From contig OX031061.1 of the NCBI GenBank assembly GCA_943736015.1, forward strand, positions 53,202,192 through 53,266,191: a stretch of DNA of 64,000 bases. The letters run 5' to 3'. The notes under the pieces were generated by a model, which ran no database searches, had not been told where the DNA came from, and was given only the letters and a program-made list of their open reading frames with translations. Made by a program: the position numbers and the translations under genes. This document shows positions 4,512 through 42,987 of this stretch, in pieces. Numbering within the stretch: the stretch's first letter is position 1; each line of letters opens with the position of its first letter. Source of the DNA: Tridacna crocea (taxonomy: Eukaryota; Mollusca; Bivalvia; Cardiida; Cardiidae).

Positions 4512-4787
4512 ACGGTCCCACTAAGCCGGTAATTCATTGTGAACAACACCTCATCACCGGCCAAACTGTTGACGTCATTCATGGGTATGATCTGTCTCTC
4601 ACGTGTTCTGCAAATGGAGATCCTCCGCCCAAGTATACTTGGAATGAAGGTGCAGGGAAGAATATTACAGTGGCTATCAAGATGGATAACTTGGTATACA
4701 ACTGTACAGCCACTAATGAGTTAAAACCTGACTATGGCAATCAGATATCTAAGTCAGCGTCAAGTATTGTCCATGTCAATCGACTAT
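4512..4787 (+). CDS. Exon: Ig-like domain 1 of the receptor
   Basis: The acceptor is tttttatag and the donor CTAT/gtaagt. Phase 1 to 1, 92 codons. The B-strand cysteine lies in LSLTCSANGDPPPKYTW, which is followed by the C-strand Trp and the F-strand cysteine in YNCTATNE. N-glycosylation sequons NIT and NCT are present. This is the first exon I can place with confidence. Its phase-1 entry requires an upstream exon, so it is not the start of the protein. Confidence 0.85.
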
Positions 4788-23300: not shown

Positions 23301-26300
23301 TTTGTACAGCAAAAACATAGCGGAATAGTCATGCTGAAAAAATATACAGTTTGATTTTCTTTCGAATATTTTATTTCGATTAGGGCGTTTCTATCACACC
23401 GGTACATGACAGGCAAAACAAGTCTCCCGTCTGATTTCCTAGCGTGTAAGCGACATTTTTGTACATACTTCTTTATTATACTGCAAAGAAATTTCTCGTG
23501 ATCTGATTGGTTAACATGCCGGGAACATATATCATGTTCCCTGGCAAAAACCACGGAAAGCCGGTTTCCCTTTTGAGTGCCCCGTAAACATCACTACACG
23601 TGCAACATAGCATCCAAACTGGTGGCGAACATCGATCATCAGACTGCACATTTATGTACCAAACTTCACGTTTTAGTGACATCAGTTTCAAGTGACGTCA
23701 GTTTTCATTACATTTGGGGCACTCAGAAGGGAATTTCTATTTTGTCGGCATACTCGATTCGTGAGATTATAATATAGGAAAATTTCGCTTCACGTACTTT
23801 GAAAGGGTAAAACTTTGCAGTATAATAAATTTGTTGTACGATCAGGTGGCAAGGGACTTGGAAACTTGTTCACGGCTGTCAAATCATGTCGCAAACTCGC
23901 CTTCGGCTCGGGGCGACATAATTCACCACAGCCGTGAACAAATTTCCAAGTCCCCTGCCACCTAACCGTACAACTAATAATGTCAATTCGTTTTTAAGCG
24001 CGTTTACTCTAGGTCCCTCTCAACGAATCGGCTCTCTTGTAAATACTACCTTACTTATTATACTGCAAAGAAATTTCTCATGAGCTGATTGGTTAACATG
24101 CTGGGAACATATATGTCATGTTCCCTGGCAAAAAACAGGTAAAGCCAGTTTCCCTTTCAGTCCCCCGTAAACATCACTACACGTGCAATACAAAATCTAA
24201 AATGGCGGCGTCGATCGATCACCAAACTGCACATTTATGCATCAAACTGCACGTGACGTTAGTTTCAAGTGACGTCAGTTTTCATTAAATTGGGGCACTT
24301 AGAAGGGAATTTCTATTTCGTCAGCATACTCAATTCGTGAGATCATAATACAGGAAAATTTCGCTTAGCGTGCTTTGAAAGGGTAAAACTTTGCTGTATA
24401 ATAAATTCGTTGTACGGCCAGGTGGCAGGGGACTTCGAAATTTGTTCACGGCTGTTTCAAATCACGTCGCAACCTCGCCTTCGGCTCGGAACGAGATGAT
24501 TTAACACAGCCGTGAACAAGTTTCCAAGTCCCCTGCCACCTCACCGTACAACTAATAAAGTTATGCTTATAAAAAGGGGGAGGGGGCCTTGCAGGTACAT
24601 CTGCAAAAACCATCGAACAATGTCACCCAGAGCATTACTCCAGGCTGACCTGGATCGACACTTTTTGTTGTAGGTAAATTTTCGCACGCTAGAGGACCAT
24701 CGTGTCCAATGATTCGACAGTTTTTACACAAAATTGATCTATATTATACGACAATATACTTGATATTATGTATTACGAAAATGCCTTTTCACAGAGCGTC
24801 ACTCAAATAGTATCGATATTTCAGGTACCCCTAGGCCCAGATACAGAGTGTCACAAAATATCACCTTCTACAGAGCTTTAAATGATTCTGTCACCCTAAA
24901 TCTATCAGTGATAGCTTACCCAGAACCTTCACTAGAACATTTTAATTGGGAAAAAATAAATAGAACAACCACTACAAATATGACAAATAGGGCCAATGTC
25001 AACATCAGTGTTGTCAGTCTTGAACCAAGCCTCACCATACACAGTTTACAACAGAAGGATTTCGGACAGTACAGGCTTAGGATTACTTACAATATCTCGA
25101 GGTCCTATTATCACTATTTCTTCATTCATCCTCCAGGTACGTATTCTTGCTTATTAATCACGCTGTCAAACTTGTTTGGATATGAAGGTTTGAATCCATG
25201 TCAAACTGTGTGAAATAATATTCAGTTCATTTTATGTGGCTCTTGTTACTGATAAATCCCCAATCACACCAAACTAGATCTTAGAACGTCTTACCCGTCC
25301 TGGCATGATCGGAAATCGGGTTGCGGTCGGGACAGAACGTGTAAATTTGATGTGACGGGGGTATAACGATCGAAATTACAGCACCATTCATCTAAAAAAA
25401 GAAATAGACAAACTACGACGGCACATCCTTTATTTGGCGAAAACTCCGAATGCCAGCAAGTGAACTGTGGTGCGTGCGACATTTCACCTTGTATTAATCC
25501 CAACTTTACTTATATTCAAGTGCAATTACATTGAGTATAGTCGGAATTAATTTGCTTACCATGAACCAAGCTGCAGGGTCGCAGGGGGATGGGGGAGCAG
25601 TTGGATTTGATTTTAATACAAAACATTAGACTACGCCTATTGAAAAGGGCTATCAGTTGATGTCACCAATGTCGTCTTATTGAGGCTGAATATCATCTTG
25701 TTTACATTTACATATTCGACATCGGTCAAAAGTAACAAAACGGGTATATGCTTTACGAGCACCAACAAATGTAAACAAGCCGTGGCATACCGAGAAATCC
25801 GACATGAAATAAAAAATAAAAGCAACTCACCTGTTTTAGAGAATACCTTAATATTTTTTTTACGGTAATTTGAATTTGTTGGTACAATATGAGAAAAATA
25901 CATGAATTGCGGTATGAGTGTGGACCGGAATAGTCTGTTATACAGGCTTGAAGACTTTTTTTTTCAAACGTCTACTGAAGTTCACACTTACTTGAATCTA
26001 GAGTATACCACATTTTTCTGTCCTAAACCTTGATGCAGAGAATTGTTTATATATATAAAATATGTGTGCTTTATCCTCACGTATTATTCTCAATGGACAA
26101 CCACAATCAAACATTTGTTTATGAGAGTAATACGGCAGATTTGTTGATTAACATTTAAATATACAGTACAACCTGTATTCAGAGACCACTCAAGGGAAGT
26201 ACTGAAATCGGTCTCTTACAGCAGGTGGTCTTTAAATACAGGTTATATTAGGTTAATGTAAGAAGGGTTGTTGTATCAGAACAGTGGTCTCTTAAAGCAG

Positions 26301-29300
26301 GTGGTCTCTTATTGCAGGTGGTCTCTAACACAGGTTTAACTGTATTTGACTTTCAGATAAGCCACAGGTACCAGCTACCTTTACCCTTATACATGACATT
26401 TTATCTGCAACAACGGCAGGCTTGGAATGGACACCTGGATTTGACGGTGGTCTGGAGCAGATATTTTATATTCTCTACAAAAAGGCTTCTGACGTTTTAT
26501 GGAACTACATAGCTGTCTCAACAAACACAGTAAATTTGACAGGCCTTGTTCCAGATACCTTATACAACGTAAAGATGTTTGCAAGTAACAGCTTAGGAAA
26601 TAGTTCCGAGACTGTTAGTCTTAATTTCACAACAAAAGAAGGTGAGGGTCTAATTTATCCCCACTAAATAAATTAATATTTAACCTTTTACTCCACAGAT
26701 ACTCATTTTGACGTATCAACAACAGACAGCTTTTGAAAACATTGTGGGAAAAGGAGAAATTGCTCGTATCGAGCAATTTCTCCTTTTCCCTCAATGTTTT
26801 CCACTCAATCAGATATTTGTATCCTCATTTGTCCATATTTTAACATCATATCTTTATTTCCTGCTGAAATGGAAGAGCGTCAAATTGGCATATTAAGTAA
26901 AGGGTTAAAAATGGGCCATGCTCTGTGAAAAAGGGGTTTAATGCATCTGCGAAAAGTATCGACCTGGATCAGTGCGTAGTGTGCCCAGGCTAACCTGGGC
27001 AGAGAGCTTTCGCTATTGGTTAATTATCGGTATGTTCAAGGACCAGTCTATCTCATGATTAAGTTGGGTGTTACAAAAGGTAGATACTATAGGTACATAA
27101 GTATGTGATGGCTTGTTTGGTACTAAAGATGACAGAGTTGCATCAAGCCCCCTTTTGTCAAAGCATGGCACATTTCTGTATATTACTCAAAATTTGCTAG
27201 GGATCACCCTAAAAGATTCACCCTTAATCTATATGTGGCATGTATCATGTATGGATTTACAATATGTTACATTGCTACACTGATCAGTAAATTAACCAGT
27301 GGAAACGGATATCTAAGCCTTTACCTCGCAATGCCGATTGTTAGAGACTCTGAGAAAGAAGCCTTTGGAAAATATTGTTGGAAAAGGATAAAATGCTGCA
27401 TACCAGCATTTTCTCCTTTTCCAACGATGTTTTCTACCCCATGCCAGACGGCGCAGTTCACGTTGCATATAGTTTTTGGTCAGCAAATAATTTCAACTTG
27501 GACAAATCTAGAACTTTACAGTATGATAAAGAGTTTATGCAAACCTGTTGTAACATATAAACCCATACAGAAATATGTAAGTGATCCCTATCAAAGTGTG
27601 AGTAGTATATATTACATTTTAACTGATGAAAAAAAAACGCGCTGATCTTGATCTACATAGTAATCGTACTGGCCGAGAGTTGATGTCAGCAAAAAAAGTT
27701 AAAAAATAATCGTGTTATGTTCCAGTGTTTACTTATTTGAATGGTTGCGTAGTGATGGTTATGATTTAGAGAGAAAACCTTACACGTGAAGAGCCAAGAA
27801 AAACGGCGAAAGATATTTCGTTTCATAGAGATTTGCATGACTCAAAACACATAAACACGGGTTTCTTTAGGAAAAGACATGAAACAATGCGGGAATACAC
27901 TAAAACGAACTTCTAAACAGCCACTTTTGTTTCTCTTGCAATTTGGAGCAAGTAAAAAAATGTAAATTAAAACAAAATGTGACATATATCTGGACGTTAA
28001 CCATGGTATTGTGATGAAAATATTCTCGTTTTTTGCCAACAGAAAAACTCTTTTTTTTTTAAAAAAAAGGTAGAATAGTTATTTGCGCACGCGTGGTGTC
28101 TATCAGTCAAAATAGTTTAAAAAAGAGAAGCATAAAATACTGATCTTTTGTAAGCAATACGAAAAAAACATCAAAATTATTTTCTGTGAAAAAAAATGTA
28201 ATCCGAAAAAACAAGCTTGAATTTTCAAAGCTTGATTTTTCAATTTACAATGTTGGGTGAATAAACAACCAATAAGTTTCTTCCACGATAAAAACTCGAT
28301 GAATTATTTTCAGAATTTGGCTCGGGTATTTTTTCAGACCAGTCAATTAATCTGCAAATAAACGAAACCAAATAAGTTGTCCTTTTTATAGGCAGCGGAC
28401 GCGAGAAAAGGTCTATAGGAAATTATAGCTTAAAGTTGCCGTTAAGAAGTTCTTTTCAGTGTGGAACAAAATTTTGGTTTCTAGTATCGTTTAATTGTAT
28501 CACAGTGATAGAACTTTATACTACATATTTCATGATAAAACATATACAGGTAATTTCTAATTTGGGATATTTGAATGCCCTGCTCGACCGATTTCGTGCT
28601 TTAACGTCGAATAAACCATTTGATAAACAGTTCCGTATTTTAACGACCCCCGGGGAAGAAGTTATTTGAAAACATTGCAAGAACAGGGGAAAATGCTGGT
28701 AATCAGCATTTTCTCCCATTCAAATGTTATCTATGCCTACCTTAAAAAGAGAATAAAACTCCACAATTTTAAGTTTTTTGTCTGCAAATACTTTCCTTTT
28801 TGTCAAGCCTAAATTTGTTTATTAGGTAAAAAAAAGTAAGCCATATTACATGTATATTGTCTTTCACTAACGGTATCGCCTGACACGACTATAGAGTTAC
28901 AAATAAATCTATCAATCTCTTTTAGGTCAAATGTTTATTTACTCTTCAAACAGGCGATTTAACCGTTCAAAATGAACGGCGCGACAGCGTATTACGGACA
29001 AAGCTCGTAAAGCGAAGCGAGTTATGCGATAACAACGTTTTACTTCCTATAGAAAAAGAATTGCGACTTTTGTTTTAGTTCTAGACTTAATTCAAATCAA
29101 GATTGTTATTGTTTTGACCATGGAGTTGTCAAAAAGCAGGCAACAAAAATTAAAAAGCAACAACCGAATTTGGCAATCCACACACGCTGGCAAAATGAAC
29201 TTCAGGTTAAGCATGGATAAGGTCACTTGCTGTCATAACAGGTGCTCTGGTTCACATGGGACACATGTATACATTTACGAGAGAATAATACATTTTATTG

Positions 29301-32300
29301 CAATGACTTCTGAAAATCCTAAAAAAAATATTGTTTGAAAAGCTTAAATTCAAAGTCAAGCTTCATGATTTAAAGATCCAGTTTGTTGTGTGATTTCTTA
29401 GATATTTTTTCCAGAAATGATTCATAAAAAGAAAGTAAATATTAATTTACTGATATATCCCCGCTTTTGACATTAAAGACCATAAAGGAAATAATATAAT
29501 AGTTTGTGTCAGTATATAATTATTGAATTTTTAGATTAGCAACGTTCCTTCTCAACCTTCGAAATTGGATTTTATACATGAATGATTTGTACGATGTTGT
29601 AGACCATTTGATTCGATTTAATAAGTCAAATTGTGCTACCGTTTTATGCAAATCGTTGAGAAAAATAAAGTATTAAAATACTTTATCCTATTTACAGAAT
29701 CTGACAAGTCATCTCCCCCAATAGCTTTGATTGGCGGTGCTGCAGGAGGCGGAGCAGCGATAGTTGTTATTGCTGTAGTAGTTTTGGTGGTGATATTTTA
29801 TAGAAGGAGTTCAAGCTTTAACGGTTGGTTTTAAAGTTTAGTCCACTGTTTTAAACTTCCTACAGTTTCAAACGATATCATTGAAAATTGGAATACAGTA
29901 AGAACTATATCTACCAGCTAAGATAACAGGTACATGTATGTTGAATTCATCAGAAATCTTACAAAGTCGATGCCTTCCTGATATTTATACCAAAATATAT
30001 ACTACTCAGACTTTGAAAGGGATCACCTACATATTTCTGTATGGATTTGTATGCTACAACAGTTTTGCATATACTATTTACCCTACTGTAAAATTCTAGA
30101 TTTGTCCAAACTGAAAGCATTTCTGGCCGAAAACTATATGTAACGTGCACTACGCTGTCTGTCATGGGGTAGAAAACATCGTTGGAAAAGGAGAAAATGC
30201 TGGTATCCAGCATTTTCTCCTTTTCCAAATGTTTTCCAAAGACTTCTTTTCTCAGTGTTTTTAACAGTCGACATTGTGAGGTAAAGGCTTAAAGATCCAT
30301 TTCCACTGGTCACTTTATTGATCAGTGTAGCATAAATGAAAACCATACATGATACATGGCACATATACATTAAGGGTGAATCTTTTAGGGTGATCCCTAG
30401 CAAATTTTGAGTAGTATATATTCGATATATTTGAAAACATGTACAAAAGACCAGAATGCATGCCTTTTGATTCAGTCAGTTTTATGGATTTATAATTATG
30501 TGATGACTTGCTTTGTAGATTATCATGCATCGCGGAGATGCTTTAAACCCTCTTTTACCGCAACATGGCTCGAACATTATTAGTTGTACGGTCAGGTGGC
30601 AGGGGATTTGGAAACTTGTTAGGATTGATGGTAGATCTAGATCCAGTCATTGCGAGAGGTGTCATTCCTGTCTCTGCACTGATCTCTGTTTCAACGATGG
30701 ATGTGTAGGGAAGCAGGCGGGATGAAAAAAGAAAGCCACATAGATCTAGTCTATATTCTGAATTTAGCGATATAAGCACTCTGATTTTAAAGAAACCCAA
30801 GGCAAAAAGTGGGTAGACCTGTGCACTAACGAAGAAATGAAAGATTTTTTTTCCTTTTGTGTGTAGGTCTATATTCAATGCGGGGGCAAGAGCACCTACC
30901 ATGTGTTCATGAAGTTCTTTTTACCGGTACTCTCCTCAATATTAGTATTCTTCCCAATCTACTGACCGATTCCAATCAAAGTGTCTCTTATAGATCTATA
31001 TATGTAGATCTTCGTGAAATGAGGAAATGTTCCCGTAAAATGCTCTTTACAAGTATGTGAACTAATAATCATTTCAAGATATTTTTCTGGACATAAAGAA
31101 ATTGCCAAGGAACTGTCTATATTTCAAGTTGTTAAGGAAACCAGGGACAGTTCGCCCTATTTCGCAGGTATAAATTTACGAAAATGCTTTTTACTCTGGA
31201 CGACGCTCAAAATTAGTTTTTGCAAAGACAAAATCCGAATTCAAACCCCTTGATTTCAAGATCTAGAATCTAGGTCGTCATTTAAATTAATAGATATTTG
31301 TTCCACAAATTTCACCACTCGTATTGAGGCTTTGCCTTTTTCACATTACGCTGAAAGTAAGTAAGAAACAGATAATCTGTACTTATTAAGCTGATGGATT
31401 TTTAAGTAATCATGTCATTGGTAGATGTTTATTGTCATTTTTTACCAATCAAGTACTTGTGCGAAAGATCGTCATACGTGTGAGGCTGTGCGAATAACCT
31501 GAAGACACTTAATTTTTAGTCATTCCTATTTGAATTTAGACTTAAACCCGTAACGAAGTCAGGATTTCAATTTTAAAAAAAGTCTAGAAAGATGTTACCG
31601 CAAAACGGGCTTGGCTCGTTATGAAATCTGGAATAACGTCATCGTTATGTGACCTAGATATAAAATGACAATTATACAAAATCTTTTTTCACAACTTAAC
31701 TACATGTAACTGTTACTGACACATATATATAAAACAATGGAATAACACAACCGGTATTAGAAGTCTGTTCTATACACTAAGAATGGAGTAGATCTTTTAA
31801 AGCAGATTTCACATGGACTTCCTTAACTGCGATAGAAAAATGTCTAGGTCACTGATACTGAATGCGGAAAAAGGTAGAAACAAACTTTTAATTGGTACAG
31901 GTATTATCCTCTGTAGCGTAAAAGTTCGGCTTTTTCATATTATAATCATCATTTGTTTCTTTGTTTGGTATATCAAAGCTGTTTTCATCAGCAGTTCAGT
32001 GACATCTAGGCGTCCAGTGAACTACCAGAGTATCATCCAAATGCACTCTGCACACTACTTTTTCCCGTATAACCATGTTAAGTGAGTGGTTAGAGATGAC
32101 TATCTTGTTTTAATGATTTATATCAATTTTTGATAAGAGCACTGTGGCAGGTATTGGTAGCCTTTCCTTTCAAAATGGCTAAAACAAACTTTACTATAGT
32201 TTTTCACCTGTATTCTATGTATAATATACATTATCTGCTTTTTTTTCTTTCCAGATTCAAAAGGCGATCAGAGCAGGTTAGCTTTATTTAAGAATTGCCT

Positions 32301-34986: not shown

Positions 34987-37900
34987 TTTGCAAAAGAGTA
35001 ATAAGAAGACCATGGCATAATTTGTGGATGAACCAAGTGTGGATGTCAATGTTCGGCTGCAGTTGCTCTACCTATGATAACTACTAAACTAGCCCAAGTT
35101 TGAAGTTAACATGATGGTTCACAACTACTCCCATTAATGACAGAGATATTATAAAGTGTCAAAATATCTGAACTTTTAAAGTCAAAAAGGACATTTATAA
35201 CTGTTTCAAAAATACTTTCTTTGATTACTGTCCGTGTTGTATGGGTTTCCATTTTGATAGTTGACTCCAATCCGAGTTTGATATGAAAATCTTCAGTAAT
35301 GACGGAGAGATATCTTAAAACGGAAAAGATTTTTTAGTGCTATGGAAATGTCTAAATGTTTCCCTCGAAAAGAGCGGGTCTAGAGATCCAAGCTATTCCA
35401 TAGGATGAAAACTTGCACTTTGACTGTCAAGTTTTTTTTTTCCAAACTGCAATATGGATGAAATTAACAACACAATCGGAAACAGAAAAATGCCCAGGAG
35501 AAGCAGGTTTTCTTTTGACTGTGAAAAACGTTTTTCGAAATTTCATGTATACAACAAAACACGGTCACATTTATAATACTATCTCTGGCACTTTCTCGGT
35601 ATATGTAGACACTCTCTCAATTTCTAATTTACATTACGGATGAATAACTTGCAAGGTAATAAGTAGTTTTGAAGGGTGCAGGCACGTAGGAAGCAATTCA
35701 AGATTGGGCGGGGGGGGGGAATTTTGCGTCGATTGAAACTCTGCGCGACAAATTATTGGGGGGGGGGGGGGCGGGCTGGGGTATGTTGTTTAAAGCCAAT
35801 CAGAAACGACAGTTGCAGTGTCAGCAAATCAGACAGCGAACAGTGTGTATTTATAGATTAACATAATGTTCAGCTTTCATGAAAAAGTCTGAAATATGGT
35901 TATTAAGGCTAGACTAGGCCGTTAGCCCCGACGAACCACTTCAAGTTGATGGTCAAATAAAGCCCTGTTCATGCACAAGCCTTGCTTGAAGTAATCAATG
36001 CTGTACTTCAGAATCCCATAATTATCCAAAATAAGTTTCCAATCATCGACCTTGTATGCCTTATTTCAATGACAGAAACATGATCAGTGTTAGTGGATGA
36101 TGCCAGAATTTGCCTTTTTTTGTTGTATATTAGGTAGAAAAAGTCGTTCGATGGACTTTGCCCGACAAGGGCAAAACAGGCCGCCATTTTGAAACTTAAG
36201 CAGTGAAACTACTCCTTTTTTTTATGAAACCAGAACTTGTCTTGGTTTTGTCAAAAGCATTGCAAAAACTGATACTGAAACCAAAACTAGTTCCAGTACA
36301 ACAAATACGCCCTATTGTCATTGTCGTAATAATTACTATCCATTTCATATCTTAGCTTTAACTGCATTGATATTAAGCAGTGGCCCGAAAAAAGACTAAG
36401 ATCGTGCAGTTTCATTCTGAAAATTAAACTAGACAAGGAACCATTTGTTATGAAATAGTCAACGACACTGCTTCCCCTAATACAGGTAGTATGGCAAGTA
36501 AACTTGCACGTCAAATTACCCAAGGTTAGGCAATTCAAGATATACATCTGGTTATCAAGACAAACATTTGTAAGACTTTTTTCCGTTTTGATTGATGATG
36601 TTTTTGTCATGAGTGACTCTGGGGAGAACAAATTCAAATCTATCATCGTGAGATAAAGGCAAATGTGGATCTTTTTCCTTCTCTAAAAAGTCAACACTAT
36701 CTCCTGTCGTTTAAGTCACCACATAACGTGATTTTCCTTACAAGAAAAATGTTTTATCTGTTTCTCTAGTTTTTGCAAAATATGTTTTTGTGCATTTTAC
36801 CAAAAGAAGAATTGGATGGAGGTACATATGCAAACGAAAGGTAAAGGTCACAATTCAAATTATACATAATCGTCATAATATTTTCTCTTAAGATATTTCT
36901 CTATGAAAGAACGCCTTTTCTTCTGGCCATAGTCTCTATAGTGGTCGTAAGTGTAGTTGTCATGAGTTTTATAATATCTATTTCAACCGTATGTTTGCCT
37001 TCTATTCTGTTCGTCGTTGTCATAGTGGCTACATCTATTAGTTTGATGATAGTTTCTCCTCTTATGCCTAATATAAGGGCCCTCGCGATTTAGGTCAACA
37101 TGTGTAGTTTTCGAACGGTACGCTCCGTCATGTCTATGTCAATAATAAGTGCTTTGCCTATGATTATAATACGGTGTAGTAAGGCGTCTGGCCCTTTGCT
37201 TCTCTCCGCTTGATGTAGAGCGGTACCTCTTTCGTCTTTCAGTTATAGAAATTCATATCCACTCATTCATCCTACTTTTAATCGTCCAAACGTGTGCAAG
37301 TTAATACGTGTATTAAAAATCACTAGAAGTGAATTTACACTGAGAGAATACAAACTGGCGTACAGGACTAACGGCCTTTCACTGCCTATCCAAAACTATT
37401 TCGCTGAATTCAGGTTTCGACCCATTTAGGTACAGTACATTTGAAGTTCGTTTATTTGCATTTCTATGGAAAATTTTTGCTATCTTTGCAAATTATTGCT
37501 AAAATACCTTTATTTTATTTAATAATAGCATTAATTCACGGTTTTCTTTTTGTCGTTAACATTGGAAGAGGCCCTCAAAATACTTTAACACCCTCGTGCT
37601 TCGCACTCGGACGTAAAAGCATTTTTCAGGCCTCTGCAAATGTTAACGACCTCAAAAACGTGAATTAACCCCATATTATTGCATAAAGTGTGCCTTTCTG
37701 GCAGTTACAAGCATGTATAAACGGGTAAAAATCGGGTGTTAACGGGAGAAAACGTGTATTAATCAGTAAATTCACGCGCCGTTAACGCCCGGCTTTATAC
37801 TATCAATATCCTCGATTCGGGCCTATCTTGTAAACAACGTTTGTCCTTGTCAGATTTTTCCTAGACCCCGACCATCAAACTGCAGGAATTTGTACCATAC

Positions 37901-40900
37901 TAGATCCTTTTCATGGCATGTGTGTGACGATATTAGTACAGCACAAACAAATTTTTGCACAGAATCTCAGTTTAATCGAGATCTGATAAAAACTTCACCC
38001 GTGAAATTTACTCTAAACCAGCTACATCCCACCCACTTCTTAATATGATCGGTCTGCCTCGCTTGATGTAGATCGAACCCACTGTCGTCTTTCAGTTTCA
38101 GAAATCCATATCCACTCATTCATCTTAATCGTCCAAACATGAGCAAGTTTATCCTATACAAGTCCTGTTTGTATTAAAAATCAACAAAAGTGTATTTACG
38201 CCGAGAGAATCAAAACTTGCATACAGGACTAGCGGCCCTTCACTGCTCGTAACCAAAACTTCTTCGCCGACTTCCGGTTTTGACCGGTCTTTCCACAGAG
38301 GCCCTCAAACTACTTAAACACCTTGTGCCTCGTACTCGGGCGTTAAAGCATTTTTCAGACCTCTGCGAATGTTAACGACCGAAAAAAAAACGTGATTTAA
38401 CCCTATATAATTACTCAGTAGCTAATGTATTTTAGCCATGCTCTGCGGAAGGGTGTTTTATACATGTCCAAAAATGCTCGACACATATCAACCTGCGGAT
38501 GGCAGTCAGAGCAGACTGGTAAGGTTCAAAAACGTTTACTACATGTAAATGTCCTATGTGTCAAAGATCCATTCTACCTTATGATTCACTTGTTAGACAA
38601 GCGTAAAAACCCTCTTTCTCCGCAGCATGACTCTCTTTACTTTTCAAAGGCAAAAATCTAACATTTCATCACACTTTTATTACAGAACAAACCCAACAGA
38701 AGACGATGGCGGGTATTGTAATACAAGTGGTAAGATTTCATTTGCATGATATTGTTGTAAAATGATAGACTTTTTCAATTTATAACAGCTCACATCCGTC
38801 AAAATAATTCATGTCTTAAATTTGTTGTTTTATTCATAAATCGAAAGAAAAAAAGAACAGAAAATGTTTTCATTACAATATTTCGAATATGTTAAATAAT
38901 TAGCTTTAAATCGATTTAATGAACTCAATCATTATCATTTGCAATTTCACTTTCAGATATATTAAGACATAATCTTTACTCATATTCTTTTTGCCCGTGA
39001 AGAGTTAACATAGGACTATTTTATGTGTGGTAAATTAGCCAGAGAAATGTGATCATGTGCAGTATTTTAAACAAAACATTGCTATCTATTTAAGGTGGAC
39101 TGTTTAACAGAGGCAATGAGACATATTATAATATTGACAGGTACGTATACTCCCTGATTTTTCTGTATCTTTTGATCAACTAAGGTATTTTATAAATTGT
39201 ATTTCGTTCCATCATATTTGATTACACAACATGGCACACAAAAAACCTGCAATTTAGTAAGTTTATTATTTTGCTATGAGTTCTCCCCGTAAACAAGACT
39301 TTTTTGTTGTATCAAAAATCATTAGAAGTGAATTTACACCGTGAGAATAAAAACTGGCATACAGGACTAACGGCCCTTCTCTGCCTAACCAAAACTTTTT
39401 CGCTGGCTTCAGGTTTCGACCCATTTAGGTACAGTACATTTGAAGTTCGTTTATTTGCATTTCTATGGAAATATTTTTGCTGTCTTTACAAATCATTACT
39501 AAGATACCTTTATTCTATGCAATAATAGTATTAATTCACGTGTTTTTTGTTTCGGTCGTTAACATTAGAAGAGGCTATCAAAGTACAGTAATACCCTCGT
39601 GCCTCGCACTCGGCCGTTAAAGCATTTTTCAGACTTCTGCGAATGTTAACGACCGAAAAAAACGTGATTTAATCCTATATAGTTACTCAGTAGCTAATGT
39701 ATTTTAGCTTTGCTCTGCGGAAGGGTGTTTTATACATGTCCAAAAATGCTCGACTCATATCATCCTGCGGAGCGCAGTCAAACCAGACTGGTAAGATTCA
39801 AAAACGTTTACTACATGTAAATGTCCTATGTGTCAAAGATCCATTCTACCTTATGATTCACTTGTTAGACAAGCGTAAAAACCCTCTTTCTCCACAGCAT
39901 GACTCTCTTTACTTTTCAAAGGCAAGAATCTAACATTTCATCACATTTTTATTACAGAACAAACCCAACAGAAGACGATGGCGAGTATTGTAATACAAGT
40001 GGTAAGATTTCATTTGCATAATATTGTTGTAAAATGATAGACTTTTTCAATTTATAACAGCTCACATCCGTCAAAATAATTCATGTCTTAAATTTGTTGT
40101 TTTATTCATAAATCGAAAGAAAAAAAGAACAGAAAATGTTTTCATTACAATATTTCGAATATGTTAAATAATTAGCTTTAAATCGATTTAATGAACTCAA
40201 TCATTATCATTTGCAATTTCACTTTCAGATATATTAAGACATAATCTTTACTCATATTCTTTTTGCCCGTGAAGAGTTAACATAGAACTATTTCATGTGT
40301 GGTAAATTAGCCACAGAAATGTGATCATGTGCAGTATTTTAAACAAAACATTGCTATCTATTTAAGGTGGACAGTTTAACAGAGGCAATGAGACATATTA
40401 TAATATTGACAGGTACGGATACTTCCTGATTTTTCTGTATCTTTTGATCAACTAAGGTATTTTATAAATTGTATTTCGTTCCATCATATTTGATAACACA
40501 ACATGGCACACAAAAAAAGCCCTGCAATTTAGTGAGTTTATTATTTCGCAATGAGTTCTCTTTGTTAAAAGATGTTTTTAATAGAAAAGATATTGGATAA
40601 ATTTGTAAATTACATGAACTATATAATGAATTAAGTAAATTACACATGTGAAAGTTATCTAACGTTATATTTCTTTAGTTCATATTTTTTCACACGTATC
40701 CCCATGATTTTTGCAGGAATCCATACGAGGAGCTACGGCACCCTGACAACCACAATCAAGAGTATGAGATGCTTCACTGCGGGGATTCCAATGCTGGTAA
40801 CTTCAACAATATTCAATTGCTGTCATAATACCAAATTTCATGTTTCCGGGTGTCCACAATATCGACCTTAAGTCTTATCTTGCTATATAAGTGAAAGGAA

Positions 40901-42987
40901 ACTTTCAAGCTGGAAGTAAAAAAAATACACTAATTTTGTTATTAAAAAGGTAATTTCTGGGGAAAGTTATCTCCTGAACGGACAGTGTAGATCCAATATC
41001 AGACTGCGCGTTCTGTGCAGTCTGATATTGATCTACACTGTCCGCAAAAGGTCAGCGACCCCCACTTAGCAGTCTAGAAGTTAATCGTCTTTTCAGAAAA
41101 AAATCATTTTAATCCTACATTGTATGTGACCCTTGCTCTATGAAAAGTGTTAAATGGATCTAAAAAGGTATAGACCTAGGTCAGCCTGTGTAGTCTGCAC
41201 GGACTGACCTGGGTCGTAACTTTTTGCTAGTGTTAATATTTCTTCAAAATGGCAAAATGGCCAGTCTACCTGCTGGTTTGAAGGTTGTTGTACGGAATGG
41301 ATATTAAGGATGTATGACATTAAATTATAATTTGATTAAGAATTTGAAATAATGTAATACGTAGTAGGACAGTACTATTTGATTCTGTCAACAGTGAGGC
41401 GATTGTTGCCTTCCTTAAGAAGAATGGACTTTATACAAAACTGTGATATTGTTTTAAAACATTTTATTCCTATTCAGACTTTTTTCTTTCTATCACTGTA
41501 TACTATCCAGTTTATTTTCTTTATAGAATATTTCTATTATGCCATTTATTATTTAATCTTTACCCATATTTTTACGGACGGAAGACGCCCGACGCAAGAC
41601 GGACGACGGATACCGGGTGATCCTGAAAGCTCCCCTTGACCATGTTTTGTCCAGTTTTTTTTTTTTTTTTTTTGTTAAATTACTGCCGAATCCTGCGTTT
41701 GGTCTACACCATCATGCCATTTGTTGGTTTAATCATGGAACCAGAGAAATAGTTCAAGAGGGAATTTTCCTGATACTGCTCTGAACTGACACCTTTACTG
41801 ATTGCGGCAAACTCTAGCATCCTATTGTTTACATTGTTAGTAATTCAACTCTGTAAAAGTCAAGATCGAATCATTCCGCACAAATTAAGTCTTTTAATTG
41901 ATATCGGGTAAAGGATGATTATTTCCTCGTATACGTTTTAACCTTTATGTAGGTAAGAGCGACTTACGTACTTTTTTTTCGGACAGTGTGGATCAAGATC
42001 AGACTACAAAGAACGTGCAGTCTGATCTTTGATCTACACACTGTTCGATTAGGAGAATTTTTCCCCTAAAAATACATTTGAGAAAGCAAATTCTATTTTT
42101 TTTTTAAGTCTTAAAAGTTTATTTTCACTTATTTAGCAGGTCGATTTAATCTACGCGAAAATGACTTGTTTTCAAGATATTTTTGAACAGATATAATGTG
42201 CTAGTTTTAGTGCACTAACAGTGAATAGATTGTATTATTTAAATGAGATTCTGATACAATTACAGTATACCAAATTTGCGGCTATTCATATGACGCGAAA
42301 TCACATCCGCCGAATAAAAACATCTACCGTTGATTTATTTCATGCTTTCCGGTAGGATATCGAGAAATAGCAGTGAAAATATTTTTCGATCTTACACTGG
42401 TACCACCAGTGAAAATACCGATTTTCACGTTCTTGTTGCCTAGGTAAATTGCGCGTGCCTAACAACCAGATGGGAAATATGACGTCATATACCTTAAATT
42501 TCTCGCGCTTGACGTAACGTTGCTATGCGGGAGAGGTACGCCACGGGGAATAAGGGAAAAGAACTGTACCGGATTTTGATAAAGCTCCTCCCAGAAAGGG
42601 TAAAAAGCATGAAATAAATAGAATATTTGTTTTTTTCGGTGAAAGATCGAAATTTATTTCATCTCGTGAACACCATCGGTAATATTTTCACGAGTGGCTG
42701 CGCCACTCGTGAAAATATTACCGATGATGTCCACTCGATGAAATAAATTTCGATCTTTCACCGAAAAAAAACAAATATCCTCTATATCTTGTGAGTGGTG
42801 GTAGTTCTATACCAAAATTATTGTTTTCAAATATTGTATACGTAAAAAAAAAATCCGGAAAAAAAAAAACCCCACTCCTTTTCCTTTTTTCACTTCAGGC
42901 GAAGCAGAATGCAGACTCCCGACAGATAAAACATACGAAAACCTGCGGCTTTCACCTATCAGGAAGAAAACTTCGTCTGCAATATGA
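4512..42987 (+). CDS. Ig/FN3 single-pass receptor with tyrosine-motif tail (14 exons seen, 5' end missing)
   Basis: Join 4512-4787, 5428-5763, 7141-7434, 8518-8814, 24825-25136, 26357-26641, 29698-29823, 32255-32276, 38686-38729, 39095-39140, 39958-40001, 40367-40412, 40717-40796, 42899-42987. All junctions are AG/GT, and the frame stays open for about 765 codons to a TGA at 42985-42987. Order: five Ig domains, one FN3 domain, a transmembrane helix, and a cytoplasmic tail of about 120 residues. The phases fit throughout: 1-1 for the first seven exons, then 1-2, 2-1, 1-2, 2-1, 1-2, 2-1. The tail holds seven tyrosine motifs: YCNT and YYNI twice each, then YEEL, YEML and YENL. By family knowledge this is a cell-surface adhesion or immune-type receptor signalling through SH2 proteins; the ligand is unknown. 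The first exon enters in phase 1, so a signal-peptide exon must lie upstream. Exon joins are my inference from splice sites and phase, not from transcripts. Confidence 0.85.
5345..5375. repeat. (TC)n microsatellite before the Ig2 exon
   Basis: About 15 TC units, 52 bases upstream of the exon. It could lengthen the pyrimidine tract region but lies beyond the usual branch point. Confidence 0.9.
5428..5763 (+). CDS. Exon: Ig-like domain 2 of the receptor
   Basis: The acceptor is cttatgcag and the donor CTTT/gtaagt. Phase 1 to 1, 112 codons. The core is FSMICDSSDGQPPPSYKW (B-strand Cys and C-strand Trp), with YQYTCIVQNE carrying the F-strand Cys. It closes with GTLIRDVTVGVLC, the usual G-strand of an I-set/C2-like domain. 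Sequons NTS, NLT, NSS and NGT suggest dense glycosylation. A long (TC)n tract ends about 50 bases upstream of the acceptor. Confidence 0.88.
6488..6755. mobile_element. GAGC(C/T)ATGCTC-type MITE
   Basis: Left end GAGCTATGCTCTGAGAAAAG, right end inverted as CCAGAGCATGGCTC. The inner part contains AATGCATCTGCGAAAAGTAT. This family is the most frequent in the window: other copies lie at 26914-27171, 38436-38640 and 39700-39910 (inside the exon duplication), with partial copies near 30443-30574, 41120-41300, 46440-46640, 50500-50700 and 51700-51860. Confidence 0.72.
7141..7434 (+). CDS. Exon: Ig-like domain 3, lacking both canonical cysteines
   Basis: The acceptor is cactaacaaag and the donor TTTT/gtaagt. 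Phase 1 to 1, 98 codons. The Ig pattern is clear: VFLSTTVTTHGSPRETYKW has Ser/Thr where the B-strand Cys should be, and EAGFYTIAATN has Ile where the F-strand Cys should be. The C-strand Trp and the D/E-x-G-x-Y corner are kept. The frame is open and the splice sites good, so this looks like a working domain without the core disulphide rather than a decayed exon. Confidence 0.85.
7701..8057. mobile_element. TA-flanked MITE, copy 1
   Basis: TA-GTGGACCCGTAATAC at the left; the right end, reverse complemented, is TA-GTGGATCCGTAATAG. TA duplications and this layout fit a Tc1/mariner-type non-autonomous element. It lies in the Ig3-Ig4 intron. A second copy lies at 60422-60781. Confidence 0.78.
8518..8814 (+). 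CDS. Exon: Ig-like domain 4 of the receptor
   Basis: The acceptor is ttacttccag and the donor AGAT/gtaagt. Phase 1 to 1, 99 codons. IEFRCHVDSNP has the B-strand Cys and CFDMGIYRCTGKNN the F-strand Cys with the D-x-G-x-Y-x-C corner. The usual C-strand Trp is absent (DMELFAVTY instead). An additional Cys sits just before the corner. Sequons NDT and NYT. The 16 kb intron that follows is the longest in the gene and is filled with repeats. Confidence 0.85.
8815..9789. other. Start of the 16-kb intron, unique AT-rich sequence
   Basis: No repeat or exon recognised until LINE B begins near 9790. Confidence 0.5.
9790..11765 (-). mobile_element. LINE B: degraded Jockey/I-like LINE with RNase H domain
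   Basis: Minus-strand fragments in order. RT end (about 11720-11600: FLNERQFSVRVGNTYPKP). Post-RT segment (about 11330-11130: KLSFIPQINYLSNNYKKALN). RNase H (about 10780-10480: ICTNGSKDGEKVAAAV, SDSLS, FCWLPSHTG). C-terminal segment (about 10290-10090), where reading across frames resembles the usual ILARLRIGHTRLTHSYLL and CxxC...H...C motif. The 3' UTR ends in a GACGGGCAGTAAAAC-like tail with ATTC repeats near 9790. Many frameshifts and stops; 5' truncated at about 11765. Older than LINE A. Confidence 0.8.
11766..15518. other. Intron sequence between LINE B and the tandem array
   Basis: Mostly AT-rich unique sequence. A poly-A run lies at 12434-12465. A TAATAAACTTTTG followed by TTCTG pentamers (about 12741-12768) looks like the 3' tail of a + strand retroelement whose body I cannot identify. 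ACAGGGTGTTTCGTATTATC at 11764 resembles the inverse of 22804-22850, perhaps one more dispersed element. Confidence 0.45.
15519..15608 (+). CDS. Candidate cryptic or alternative 90-base exon in the Ig4-Ig5 intron
   Basis: A good acceptor (ctttattgcag) and donor (TCCT/gtaaga) bound 90 bases that are open in the phase 1-1 frame required between Ig4 and Ig5. The reading is LESKVSHDSELCTF, then YNAPYALRVGVCSHSC. It contains no Ig fold and no motif I recognise, so it may be a chance match. If used, it would insert 30 residues with several cysteines without shifting the frame. Confidence 0.25.
15811..17600. repeat. Seven-monomer tandem array with alternating subtypes
   Basis: Monomers of 239-303 bases begin near 15811, 16118, 16373, 16618, 16917, 17168 and 17407, each with a TTTACCAAATAAAtCCTGG-like start. 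Each also contains a GTCGTCTGCAAATACTTTCA-like block and a TTTTCCTACAATGTTTTCt-like block. Monomers 2, 4 and 6 share GAAAGCAGGAAATGCTTTAAC; monomers 3, 5 and 7 lack it and share other bases (AACAAGATCAATA). This is a two-monomer higher-order repeat. The shared blocks match the TTAA-flanked hairpin elements elsewhere in the window. Confidence 0.85.
17724..17819. repeat. ACAT-type microsatellite at the 3' end of LINE A
   Basis: ACATACATACATACATGCAT and degenerate ACAC/ATAC units. On the minus strand it is the (ATGT)n tail of LINE A. Confidence 0.8.
17820..21262 (-). pseudogene. LINE A ORF2: endonuclease-reverse transcriptase, broken
   Basis: Starts in the same frame as ORF1 immediately after its TAG: NVNINILTWNICGF, then GLEQTW where related elements have QETW, so the catalytic Glu appears moved or lost. 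The first in-frame ATG (20903-20905) lies inside the endonuclease. The frame shifts near 20070, meets a stop at about 19875, shifts again near 19240 at an A/T run, and again near 18675 and 18030. RT motifs are still readable between the breaks. The C-terminus has CTFC and NEFHAFFNC-like residues of the usual zinc knuckle. Dead as a protein, but young enough to read through. Confidence 0.85.
21263..22315 (-). CDS. LINE A ORF1: 2A-leader, coiled coil, RNA-binding fold
   Basis: Intact frame of about 350 codons from the first ATG (22313-22315) to a TAG at 21263. Order: a hydrophobic leader (NVLRLTLFISILFTLG, about residues 40-55); a 2A motif GGDVETNPGP (22134-22163); a long charged coiled coil (KDEVKADLKTLNDKMGG and onward); an L1-ORF1-like RRM region starting ESHSRRNNLRIYGI; and a C-terminal domain around RPIIVKF-like PIIVKFGRYKD. 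By family knowledge the protein binds element RNA. 2A sequences make the ribosome skip the Gly-Pro bond, so the leader would be released co-translationally from the RNA-binding part. Confidence 0.88.
   Translation of the reverse strand: MGVDINVYRILIGLFSMPRKCRFKLDSICFARATVSNVLRLTLFISILFTLGGDVETNPGPTRPQRQKTLSFAESLASPSFSQANSPTASSRKQTNIQREQDNEIMSFLRELKDEVKADLKTLNDKMGGVESSISALRDENEKLRIENREIKDELSKLYTKMDTLESHSRRNNLRIYGIRSELNDTWEVTEQRVRNFIKDELDMPDQEHVEIERAHKLGSKHSDRTPIIVKFGRYKDKDMILNRARQRFERDSPFSVKEDFTERVLKHRKILGERLAEARAKGSYARLNYDKLIVDGQTYKYDERTNEIVRTWGHRVHQQPIRNARERNANEMGRSDQSAPYSGSALDDE
22490..23472. other. Intron sequence upstream of LINE A, nothing recognised
   Basis: AT-rich. AAGGACAGATATTGTGAAAT at about 22812 is shared (inverted) with 11764-11800. 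No exon. Confidence 0.45.
23473..24561. repeat. Two tandem copies of a compound inverted-repeat element
   Basis: Copies at 23473-23982 and 24055-24561 (offset 582) share almost all bases. Each has a front part bounded by TTATTATACTGCAAAG and its inverse CTTTGCAGTATAATAA, then a large hairpin. The hairpin's arms read GTACGATCAGGTGGCAAGGG... and its reverse complement, around a loop rich in CTCGCCTTCGGCTCG. A broken third copy starts at 30583. Confidence 0.8.
24825..25136 (+). CDS. Exon: Ig-like domain 5, lacking both canonical cysteines
   Basis: The acceptor is cgatatttcag and the donor CCAG/gtacgt. Phase 1 to 1, 104 codons. VTLNLSVIAYPEP lacks the B-strand Cys, HFNWEK keeps the Trp, and LQQKDFGQYRLRITYN keeps D-x-G-x-Y but has no F-strand Cys. 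It is very rich in sequons (NIT, NDS, NLS, NRT, NMT, NIS). With domain 3 this makes two cysteine-less Ig domains out of five. Confidence 0.82.
25137..26160. other. Intron between Ig5 and FN3, nothing recognised
   Basis: Unique sequence; two opposed open frames at 25640-25900 lack protein likeness. Confidence 0.45.
26161..26344. mobile_element. 184-bp MITE ending 12 bases before the FN3 splice acceptor
   Basis: The left end ATACAGTACAACCTGTATTC, then AGAGACCAC, is inverted at the right (GTGGTCTCT...GGTTTAACTGTAT). Internal copies of GCAGGTGGTCTCTTA. Its right terminus lies just upstream of tgactttcag, so the branch point of this intron probably falls inside the element. Confidence 0.72.
26357..26641 (+). 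CDS. Exon: fibronectin type III domain
   Basis: The acceptor is tgactttcag and the donor GAAG/gtgagg. Phase 1 to 1, 95 codons. FN3 signs: KPQVPATFTL at the A-strand, GLEWTPGFDGG with the B-strand Trp, then VNLTGLVPDTLYNVKMFA, the classic L-x-P-x-T-x-Y-x-V pattern, then ASNSLGNSSETVSL. It is the only FN3 domain and sits between the Ig domains and the membrane. The exon is squeezed between two small transposon relics, ending 12 bases upstream and starting 38 bases downstream. Confidence 0.88.
26680..26908. mobile_element. piggyBac-like MITE (copy 3) just after the FN3 exon
   Basis: TTAACC... to ...GTAAAGGGTTAA, with a hairpin around GGAGAAATTGCTCGTATCGA. It begins 38 bases downstream of the FN3 donor site, in sense orientation within the receptor's intron. 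Confidence 0.78.
26914..27171. mobile_element. GAGC(C/T)ATGCTC-type MITE, second full copy
   Basis: Left end GGCCATGCTCTGTGAAAAAG, right end CAAAGCATGGCAC, and AATGCATCTGCGAAAAGTAT in common with 6488-6755. It lies back to back with the 430-bp MITE at 27179. Confidence 0.72.
27179..27612 (+). mobile_element. 430-bp MITE, copy 1, carrying an internal hairpin element
   Basis: Ends TATATTACTCAAAATTTGC and (reverse complement of the right end) TATATACTACTCACACTTTG form inverted termini of about 30 bases, both reading into TAGGGATCAC. A decayed TTAA-type hairpin element lies inside (27320-27520). An inverted copy lies at 29997-30420. Confidence 0.78.
29698..29823 (+). CDS. Exon: juxtamembrane and transmembrane segment
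   Basis: The acceptor is cctatttacag and the donor AACG/gttggt (a weak but legal GT). Phase 1 to 1, 42 codons. A short SDKSSPP linker precedes a Gly/Ala-rich start (ALIGGAAGGGAAIVVIAVV) and a Val/Ile-rich helix. It ends in YRRSSSFN, whose arginines mark the cytosolic side. The exon length is a multiple of three and symmetric, so skipping it would give a soluble receptor still in frame. Confidence 0.88.
29997..30420 (-). mobile_element. 430-bp MITE, copy 2, inverted relative to copy 1
   Basis: The reverse complement of this interval matches 27179-27612 along its whole length, including the nested hairpin element. The two copies flank the membrane exon (29698-29823) in inverted orientation, with 2.4 kb between them. 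Confidence 0.78.
30575..32254. other. Intron after the membrane exon, mostly unique
   Basis: A broken arm of the 23.5-kb hairpin element lies at 30583-30622. An open frame at 31813-32085 has a hydrophobic stretch but no splice support in the receptor's phase. Confidence 0.45.
32255..32276 (+). CDS. 22-base micro-exon of the cytoplasmic tail
   Basis: A very strong pyrimidine tract ending ttttcttttccag precedes ATTCAAAAGGCGATCAGAGC plus AG, followed by gttagc. It enters in phase 1 and leaves in phase 2, encoding DSKGDQS and part of an Arg. It is needed to bridge the membrane exon (phase 1) to the next tail exon (phase 2). That phase match is the main support. Confidence 0.7.
32340..34167 (-). 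mobile_element. LINE C, 3' half: reverse transcriptase remnant
   Basis: Minus-strand readings include a pre-RT segment (33785-33459: NPIMEYDPQNAWTIINELKN); RT blocks 33000-32680 (KASINGKVYKLMKYIYQH); an active-site box reading LLYEDDTVLLS near 32740, where the usual A of YADD is E; and the post-RT block 32630-32440 (YKYLAVIISNTENF). Many breaks. The element continues beyond an inserted 2.1 kb element at 36312. Confidence 0.78.
34168..36311. mobile_element. 2.1 kb inverted-repeat element inserted in LINE C (non-coding)
   Basis: The left end cgtatttg plus an aaaccggttt-rich stretch is the imperfect reverse complement of the right end (...ccaaaactagttcc, ending caaatacg). Both ends carry repeats of an ACCGGTTT/AACTAGTTT-like motif. 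LINE C reads up to both borders, which defines the insertion. Inside are a (TGTC)n tract, two poly-G runs (about 35706-35716 and 35757-35771) and no transposase I can recognise. No clear target-site duplication. Probably a non-autonomous DNA transposon, superfamily unknown. Confidence 0.65.
34941..34986. repeat. (TGTC)n microsatellite
   Basis: Eleven or more perfect units, inside the element inserted in LINE C. Confidence 0.92.
36312..37260 (-). mobile_element. LINE C, 5' half: endonuclease remnant and basic ORF1 end
   Basis: Minus-strand readings: CGDLNDR near 36730 and GSSVVDYFITNG near 36470 are APE endonuclease blocks; FAYVPPSNSSF lies near 36830. Upstream (37250-36890) a Tyr/Arg/His-rich reading such as YNHRQSTYY, KTHDNYTYDHYRDYGQKKRR fits a basic ORF1 C-terminus. 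The same element as 32340-34167, split by the insertion at 34168-36311. Confidence 0.7.
37280..37680. repeat. Third copy of the repeat flanking the duplicated tail exons
   Basis: This stretch (TTTCGACCCATTTAGGTACA and nearby, then a TTAACGACC/TTAACATT-rich part) recurs at 38160-38400 and 39310-39680. It therefore flanks each duplicated unit on its left side. Such direct copies are natural substrates for unequal crossing over. Confidence 0.7.
38686..38729 (+). CDS. Tail exon A, copy 1 (YCNT motif)
   Basis: The acceptor is tttattacag and the donor AGTG/gtaaga. 44 bases, phase 2 to 1, encoding TNPTEDDGGYCNTSG. The Tyr followed by x-Asn fits a Grb2-type SH2 site (pY-x-N). It is repeated almost exactly 1272 bases downstream. 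Confidence 0.78.
39095..39140 (+). CDS. Tail exon B, copy 1 (YYNI motif)
   Basis: The acceptor is ctatttaag (weak) and the donor ACAG/gtacgt. 46 bases, phase 1 to 2, encoding GLFNRGNETYYNIDR. YYNI fits both Y-x-x-I and pY-x-N. Exons A plus B together begin and end in phase 2, so the pair forms an insertable cassette of 90 bases (30 codons). Confidence 0.75.
39958..40001 (+). CDS. Tail exon A, copy 2 (YCNT motif)
   Basis: Exactly 1272 bases downstream of copy 1, with the same splice sites. It differs by one base (GGG to GAG), giving Gly to Glu just before the Tyr: TNPTEDDGEYCNTSG. The acidic residue before the Tyr would suit a kinase substrate site better. Confidence 0.78.
40367..40412 (+). 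CDS. Tail exon B, copy 2 (YYNI motif)
   Basis: 1272 bases downstream of copy 1. One base differs (CTG to CAG, Leu to Gln): GQFNRGNETYYNIDR. The splice sites are unchanged, with donor ACAG/gtacgg. It leaves in phase 2 and joins exon 40717-40796 without a break, as copy 1 joins exon A copy 2. Confidence 0.75.
40717..40796 (+). CDS. Tail exon C: YEEL-x9-YEML, ITAM-like
   Basis: The acceptor is gatttttgcag and the donor GCTG/gtaact. 80 bases, phase 2 to 1. It encodes NPYEELRHP, then DNHNQEYEMLHCGDSNAG. The two Y-x-x-L units are nine residues apart. A textbook ITAM has six to eight (some tolerate more), so this is ITAM-like by spacing only; each unit alone could also act as an ITIM- or hemITAM-like SH2 site. 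It is the most motif-dense exon of the tail. Confidence 0.85.
40979..41048. repeat. GGACAGTGTAGATC hairpin family
   Basis: GGACAGTGTAGATCCAATAT and its inverse TGATATTGATCTACACTGTCC, with GCAGTCTGATAT arms. Copies at 41981-42051 and 52838-52911; weaker ones at 48486-48545 and 53072-53130. Confidence 0.75.
42332..42779. mobile_element. TTTATTTCATGC element plus long palindrome (copy 1)
   Basis: TTTATTTCATGCTTTCCGG at 42334 and AAAAGCATGAAATAAATAG at 42603 are inverted ends. A palindrome with arms of about 75 bases follows (42622-42779; centre GAGTGGCTGCGCCACTC). It sits in the last intron of the receptor gene, directly before the terminal exon. Related copies: 50922-51410, 54945-55084 and (inverted, partial) 46700-46990. 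Confidence 0.75.
42899..42987 (+). CDS. Terminal exon D: YENL motif and stop
   Basis: The acceptor is tttcacttcag. It enters in phase 1 and reads EAECRLPTDKTYENLRLSP, then IRKKTSSAI and TGA at 42985-42987. KTYENL is a third Y-x-x-L and also pY-E-N, a Grb2-type site. It lies about 115 bases downstream of a long palindromic repeat (42622-42779). Confidence 0.82.

What the first reader, a model, noticed from the sequence alone, without database searches (positions are those of the whole stretch)
38150..40560. In-frame tandem duplication of a two-exon signalling cassette in the receptor tail
Seen: exons A (44 bases, phase 2-1) and B (46 bases, phase 1-2) occur twice, 1272 bases apart, with intact splice sites. 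Together they add exactly 30 codons, and the outer phases are equal, so the copy keeps the frame. It doubles the YCNT and YYNI motifs. The only two exon differences both change the residue, one placing Glu before a Tyr. Inference: a recent gain of phosphotyrosine sites by unequal crossing over, with the 37.3/38.2/39.3-kb repeat as a likely substrate.
Basis: partly seen in the sequence, partly recalled or inferred. Interest (0 to 1): 0.85.

Follow-up and report, generated by a model that had tools for sequence, protein, structure and literature searches.

The report
Repeating signalling exons in a receptor tail
An animal cell-surface receptor gene carries a small pair of exons, coding for tyrosine signalling sites, that is repeated twice in one gene copy and three times in its near-identical twin on the same chromosome, so the number of signalling sites appears able to change by whole units.

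Summary
Exons A (44 nt) and B (46 nt) occur twice, 1,272 nt apart, with intact splice sites; each pair adds 30 codons in frame. The gene encodes Ig domains, one FN3, a transmembrane segment and a tyrosine-rich tail.

New here: a second, intact copy of the gene lies about 200 kb downstream on the same chromosome, in a large duplication (mostly 98-99% BLAST identity), and carries three A-B pairs. Both loci share the same first and last unit types, so the first cassette duplication predates the gene duplication and is unlikely to be an assembly artefact. The unit core is far more alike between units than the left flank, as gene conversion would give.

Each pair adds two YxN motifs (Grb2-SH2 type): 5 here, 7 in the twin.

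Most likely a recombination-prone array that sets docking-site number. No RNA, reads or binding data were available; exons are not less variable than introns, so selection is not shown. Species not identified.

The parts
4512..4787 (+). Ig-domain exon (first one found; upstream exons and signal peptide not established)
   Evidence: AG/GT borders; Pfam Ig_3 best stretch lies here
5428..5763 (+). Ig-like exon
   Evidence: borders; Ig by inspection, Pfam counts 4 Ig_3 stretches without printing where the others lie
8518..8814 (+). Ig-like exon
   Evidence: as the previous one
24825..25136 (+). Ig-domain exon (I-set)
   Evidence: borders; Pfam I-set best stretch lies here
26357..26641 (+). fibronectin type III exon
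   Evidence: Pfam fn3 1.6e-7
29698..29823 (+). transmembrane exon
   Evidence: hydrophobic run in the translation, by inspection
32255..32276 (+). 22-nt tail exon before the cassettes
   Evidence: splice sites and phase; recognisable in an older relative
37309..37676 (+). R1, copy of a dispersed repeat of about 370 nt
38169..38408 (+). R2, internally deleted copy of R, left edge of unit 1 (right end approximate)
38686..38729 (+). exon A of unit 1 (GGYCNT)
39095..39140 (+). exon B of unit 1 (TYYNID)
39308..39680 (+). R3, full-length R at the junction of units 1 and 2; mosaic, right end R2-like
39958..40001 (+). exon A of unit 2 (GEYCNT)
40367..40412 (+). exon B of unit 2 (TYYNID)
40717..40796 (+). 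tail exon C (YEEL, YEML)
42899..42987 (+). last coding exon (YENL) to the TGA at 42985-42987

Best explanation
This is a tandem array of a symmetric two-exon cassette in the cytoplasmic tail of an Ig/FN3 single-pass receptor. Each cassette, if spliced in, adds 30 codons with two YxN tyrosine sites of the Grb2-SH2 type (YCNT, YYNI). The array was founded by ectopic recombination involving the dispersed repeat R. It was carried along when the gene was duplicated, its core has been homogenised by gene conversion or unequal exchange between units, and its copy number now differs (2 here, 3 in the twin gene). Functionally it would change the number of adaptor-docking sites, and the Gly/Glu difference before YCNT would change how fast that site is phosphorylated. 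Shown: array, frame, splice signals, twin gene with three units, unit relationships. Inferred: recombination history. Not shown: inclusion in mRNA, phosphorylation, adaptor binding, benefit.
For: Exon borders and open frame for both gene copies. Five cassette places in the genome, two plus three (patterns). Twin gene intact: 7 differences in the 1,654 nt of the seven exons before the array, 1 in exon C, none in the last exon. Unit types: U1 pairs with P1 and U2 with P3. Core (-139..+500 from A) against left flank (-379..-140), same intervals for each pair: U1-U2 11/640 against 20/239 (p 1e-5), P1-P3 6/640 against 20/239 (p 1e-7), P1-P2 6/640 against 22/240 (p 1e-8), P2-P3 2/640 against 12/239 (p 7e-6). 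R3 mosaic: of sites where R1 and R2 differ, all 8 from R3 position 311 to 374 match R2, while left of 311 22 of 34 match R1, 8 R2, 4 neither. A tail with one cassette has 3 YxN (shuffles p 0.024) and 4 YxxL/I (p 0.0004). Literature: YXNX sites of LAT bind Grb2-SH2 and their number sets cross-linking (PMC3291652, passages); Gly at -1 makes LAT Y132 a poor ZAP-70 substrate, Asp/Glu speeds it (PMC8085316, passages; PMC7517355, passages).
Against: No RNA evidence of inclusion. Among five units the exons are at least as variable as the surrounding core (4/90 against 11/550, p 0.25), and 3 of the 4 exon changes alter the residue, so constraint is not shown. In the seven upstream exons 5 of 7 differences between the twins alter the residue, and their rate (7/1,654) is not significantly below the non-exon rate (259/35,691; p 0.18). 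No R copy was found right of the last unit, so the founding crossover needs an extra assumption (a polymorphic or lost R). The control pair U2-P3 (the same unit type in the two genes) also tends to differ more in the left flank (6/640 against 7/239, p 0.05), while U1-P1 does not (7/640 against 3/240, p 1.0); a locally faster-evolving flank could explain part of the contrast. SH2 and kinase preferences are taken from mammals.
Confidence: 0.6

Rival explanations
1. The two gene copies are the two haplotypes of one locus placed in series by the assembler; the array is then a 2/3-copy allelic length polymorphism of one receptor gene. (The rivals are not all mutually exclusive.)
For: Identity is mostly 98-99% by BLAST and varies along the block (0.1-1.9% substitutions per 2 kb; printed as 100% over 9,452 nt upstream); structural differences such as a transposon-like insertion in one copy. 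In pearl oyster, Ig genes differ in copy number between haplotypes (PMC9646362, passages).
Against: No N run in the 332.8 kb that hold both copies. About 107 kb between the copies has no match to copy 2 in that stretch at 92% identity or more over at least 350 nt. A 10-kb piece of that interval has further copies at 90-95% elsewhere on the same chromosome, so the zone holds duplications beyond two haplotypes. Block order differs between the copies.
Confidence: 0.25
2. Neutral exon duplication: the units come and go by recombination, and splicing includes one or more without consequence.
For: Exons are not less variable than introns; few changes and no selection signal; the symmetric pair is tolerated by the frame.
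Against: All ten exons in the five units keep splice sites, frame and the three cassette tyrosines, though at 1-2% divergence few losses are expected anyway; motif density of the tail is above shuffles.
Confidence: 0.3
3. Cassette pairs are alternatively spliced to make isoforms with 0 to 2 (or 3) pairs, so the array is a switch rather than a fixed valence gain.
For: Any whole number of pairs, and a direct A1-to-B2 splice, keeps the frame (phases).
Against: No transcript data; regulatory sequences were not looked for.
Confidence: 0.3
4. Local assembly artefact: the second unit is a misjoined allele of the first.
For: Short tandem repeats can be misassembled (general knowledge).
Against: Units differ by type (R2 against R3, left side 8-16% apart), and the second locus has the same ordered types.
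Confidence: 0.03

Closest known systems
Ig/FN3/transmembrane genes clustered in non-syntenic, copy-variable regions of the pearl oyster genome (PMC9646362, passages seen)
   Same: Ig domains, often with FN3 and TM at the C-terminus; Ig gene copy number differs between haplotypes of one individual
   Different: There whole genes and Ig-domain number vary; the passages seen do not describe repetition of tail signalling exons
Oyster CgIgIT2, five Ig domains, TM and an ITAM (review PMC11999971, passages seen)
   Same: Ig receptor with tyrosine motifs in the tail
   Different: No FN3 and no repeated cassette in the passage seen; the YEEL/YEML spacing here (9 residues) is outside the usual 6-8 (recalled)
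LAT/LAB/LAX adaptors with several YXNX sites (PMC3291652, passages seen)
   Same: Several Grb2-type sites in one membrane protein; Gly or acidic residue before a tyrosine matters in LAT (PMC8085316, passages)
   Different: No Ig ectodomain; sites not known to me as a tandem exon array (recalled)
Duplicated, alternatively spliced exon of alternative oxidase in Crassostrea virginica (PMC5589949, search listing only)
   Same: Tandem exon duplication in a bivalve gene
   Different: An enzyme, not a receptor tail; no docking motifs
H. pylori CagA EPIYA-C repeats (PMC4623810, abstract and opening text seen)
   Same: Whole-unit copy variation of a phosphotyrosine docking segment changes SH2-protein binding
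   Different: Bacterial effector without exons; no kinship

Membership tests
Ig superfamily receptor with FN3 and TM | Ig domains | tested here: met
   Pfam Ig_3 2.4e-20, 4 stretches
Ig superfamily receptor with FN3 and TM | FN3 domain and single TM segment | tested here: met
   fn3 1.6e-7; TM by inspection of the translation
Ig superfamily receptor with FN3 and TM | signal peptide | tested here: inconclusive
   a simple scan gave no convincing candidate: one short, weak one of fitting phase (3817-3856) and one of other phases
ITAM receptor | YxxL/I-x(6-8)-YxxL/I | tested here: not met
   YEEL-x9-YEML (sequence); consensus recalled
ITIM receptor | [SIVL]xYxx[ILV] | tested here: not met
   residues at -2 are N, Q, K for YEEL, YEML, YENL and E for YYNI; consensus recalled
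Grb2-SH2 docking tail | YxN motifs | tested here: met
   5 in the window gene, 7 in the twin
Grb2-SH2 docking tail | binding when phosphorylated | not testable with these tools
   needs peptides and protein
Tandem exon duplication array | homologous exons in tandem with splice sites and frame | tested here: met
Tandem exon duplication array | expression of the duplicated exons | not testable with these tools
   no RNA held

The most novel reading that the evidence does not exclude
A receptor tail whose adaptor valence is set by a recombining exon array: individuals or gene copies carry different numbers of 30-residue double-YxN cassettes, kept alike by gene conversion, with a Gly/Glu toggle before the tyrosine that tunes phosphorylation rate, so that the signalling gain of an immune-type receptor evolves by whole units, as EPIYA-C number does in CagA.
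Probability: 0.2. Interest if true: 0.8.

Novelty: new variant of a known kind. Interest (0 to 1): 0.52.

Why it matters
Copy variation of Ig-domain number and of whole Ig receptor genes is known. A recombining array that changes the number of intracellular tyrosine docking sites while keeping the frame would make 'does docking valence evolve by unit number?' directly testable in natural gene copies, with two near-identical receptors that differ chiefly in tail unit number as a ready comparison. Three searches of the held open-licence library bear on prior reports: (tandem exon duplication with bivalve) listed one paper, on alternative oxidase; (duplicated exons with tail tyrosine or phosphotyrosine terms) listed none. 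That is a narrow search, not proof of absence.

Tried and rejected
Looked for A-B in older relatives (FN3 80% and 70% identical at C6:49.00 and 49.79 Mb; their TM exons found too). In 6.4 kb fetched from the first the TM exon and the 22-nt exon are recognisable, but A, B and C were not found within 16, 16 and 28 substitutions; the stretch ends about 3.5 kb past the 22-nt exon, short of the 6.4 kb at which A lies in the window, so this is inconclusive. Pattern searches gave no A or B near those loci: exon A pattern 7 matches, 5 of them the known units; exon B pattern 51 matches against 70 for the reversed control, the 5 without mismatch being the known units; a stricter B pattern 5 matches, all known units. 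Exon C and the last exon matched only the two twin genes (4 matches). A more diverged cassette would be missed.

'P2 is a fresh copy of P3' was considered: the core fits (2/640), the left flank does not (12/239). Either P2 is an older unit with a converted core, and the window locus lost a middle unit, or the flank is hypervariable; not resolved.

'Simple crossover between flanking R copies' was rejected as stated, since no R was found right of the last unit in either array; a polymorphic or lost R is an inference. Structure prediction was not run: it would not bear on the tail.

Paper searches without any paper. One search listed 8 papers, none of which looked like a primary report on the oyster receptor from its listing; the primary paper named in the review was not held.

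Full report
Observation. Exons A and B are present twice as reported: A1 38686-38729, B1 39095-39140, A2 39958-40001, B2 40367-40412, start-to-start 1,272 nt, AG/GT borders intact. The exon model from the first Ig exon found at 4512 to the TGA at 42985-42987 is open and in phase; A runs from phase 2 to 1 and B from 1 to 2, so each pair is a symmetric insert of 90 nt. The two exon differences, GGG/GAG and CTG/CAG, change Gly/Glu and Leu/Gln. The N-terminus was not established.

The gene. Pfam finds Ig domains (Ig_3, 4 stretches, 2.4e-20) and one FN3 (1.6e-7); a transmembrane segment follows, by inspection. With the tail left out, PDB matches are generic Ig/FN3 adhesion, receptor and muscle proteins (39 distinct sequences at E up to 0.01, among them titin, NCAM2, RPTP-delta, contactins), which say little about its role. 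The tail holds YCNT and YYNI twice, then YEEL, YEML and YENL. A tail with one cassette has 3 YxN and 4 YxxL/I; shuffles reach these in 2.4% and 0.04% of 100,000 trials.

A twin gene with three units. The assembly that holds the window (1.049 Gb, 31 contigs) has five cassette places, two in the window and three about 200 kb downstream on the same chromosome. Most of window 1-44927 recurs there, in blocks with short interruptions: 98-99% BLAST identity up to 37796, 96-97% over the arrays, 88-89% at the right end. The match continues upstream of the window (9,452 nt, identity printed as 100%). The twin gene is intact, with three A-B pairs in frame. It differs from the window gene at 7 of 1,654 nt in the seven exons before the array (5 change the residue), at 1 nt of exon C and at none of the last exon. 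The non-exon rate is 259/35,691, and the contrast with the seven exons is not significant (p 0.18). Further right, the duplicated blocks are in another order. About 107 kb between the copies shows no match to copy 2 in the 332.8 kb examined, at 92% identity or more over at least 350 nt. A 10-kb piece of that interval has other copies at 90-95% on the same chromosome. No N run occurs in the 332.8 kb. I therefore favour two real loci over two haplotypes in series, but reads are needed.

Unit history. Call the window units U1, U2 and the twin's P1, P2, P3. Along the unit U1 is like P1 and U2 like P3, with P2 sharing the R3-type left edge of U2 and P3. Hence at least two unit types existed before the gene copies parted. 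I compared the core (-139..+500 from A) with the left flank (-379..-140) in the same way for seven of the ten unit pairs: U1-U2 11/640 against 20/239 (p 1e-5), P1-P3 6/640 against 20/239 (p 1e-7), P1-P2 6/640 against 22/240 (p 1e-8), P2-P3 2/640 against 12/239 (p 7e-6), U2-P2 7/640 against 15/240 (p 6e-5); the two same-type pairs serve as controls, U1-P1 7/640 against 3/240 (p 1.0) and U2-P3 6/640 against 7/239 (p 0.05) (U1-P2, U1-P3 and U2-P1 were not tested). Homogenisation of the core by conversion or exchange is the simplest reading; a faster-evolving flank is a partial alternative, as the U2-P3 control suggests.

The repeat R. R (39308-39680) is a dispersed repeat: the own-genome search had 1,124 first-look candidates and scored 40, the 35 outside the two arrays being 84-85% identical. 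Within the 332.8 kb it was found only at the two arrays. R2 before U1 has an internal deletion; R3 before U2 is full length. At sites where R1 and R2 differ, R3 matches R2 at all 8 from position 311 to 374 and at those beyond the repeat proper; left of 311 it matches R1 at 22 of 34, R2 at 8 and neither at 4.

Polarity. The Glu before YCNT occurs in U2, P1, P2 and P3; the Gly and the Leu are peculiar to U1. P2 and P3 carry Ser in place of the preceding Gly. By parsimony the window's first unit lost an acidic -1 residue rather than its second gaining one; no outgroup cassette was found to test this.

How it would work. Mammalian YXNX sites in LAT bind the SH2 domain of Grb2 and their number sets cross-linking (PMC3291652, passages). 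A Gly before LAT Y132 makes it a poor ZAP-70 substrate, and Asp or Glu there speeds phosphorylation (PMC8085316, passages; PMC7517355, passages). Transferred to this gene (inference), each cassette adds two docking sites and U1's YCNT would be the slow one. CagA shows that whole-unit repeats of a phosphotyrosine segment can raise SH2-protein binding steeply (PMC4623810, abstract and opening text); this is an analogy only.

What speaks against function. Across five units the exons vary at 4/90 sites against 11/550 in the rest of the core (p 0.25), and three of the four exon changes alter the residue. No RNA was available. Neutral turnover of a tolerated exon pair is a live rival.

Known background. 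In the pearl oyster, genes with Ig domains, often with FN3 and TM, cluster in regions that differ between haplotypes (PMC9646362, passages), and an oyster Ig receptor with an ITAM is reviewed in PMC11999971 (passages). The present tail is not a canonical ITAM (spacing 9) or ITIM by the consensus as I recall it.

Noticed in passing
window 37792-37796; twin copy C6:53434187-53440848: A 6.7-kb insert with long ORFs (1154 and 768 aa, minus strand) that look like a non-LTR retrotransposon by inspection (no family search) lies in the twin's tail intron, flanked by GCTTT; the window has the empty site.
   Followed up: partly
window 42334-42784: About 450 nt with a palindrome (69-nt arms 42630-42698 and 42702-42770, 94% complementary) in the last intron, absent from the twin gene.
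   Followed up: partly
C6:53315001-53325000 (L020): Its first 4.5 kb have further copies at 90-95% at several places between 53.0 and 53.33 Mb of the same chromosome, a zone rich in duplications.
   Followed up: no
window 18-22.4 kb, minus strand: ORFs that look like a fragmented non-LTR retrotransposon (by inspection) in a gene intron, shared with the twin copy.
   Followed up: no
window 1-37796 against the twin: Substitutions between the gene copies are fewest at the left (0.1-0.45% in the first 6 kb) and 0.4-1.9% per 2 kb further right, not monotonic; the match upstream of the window is printed as 100%.
   Followed up: partly
C6:49.00 and 49.79 Mb: Two older relatives of the gene on the minus strand of the same chromosome (FN3 80% and 70% identical); their distal tails were not seen.
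   Followed up: partly
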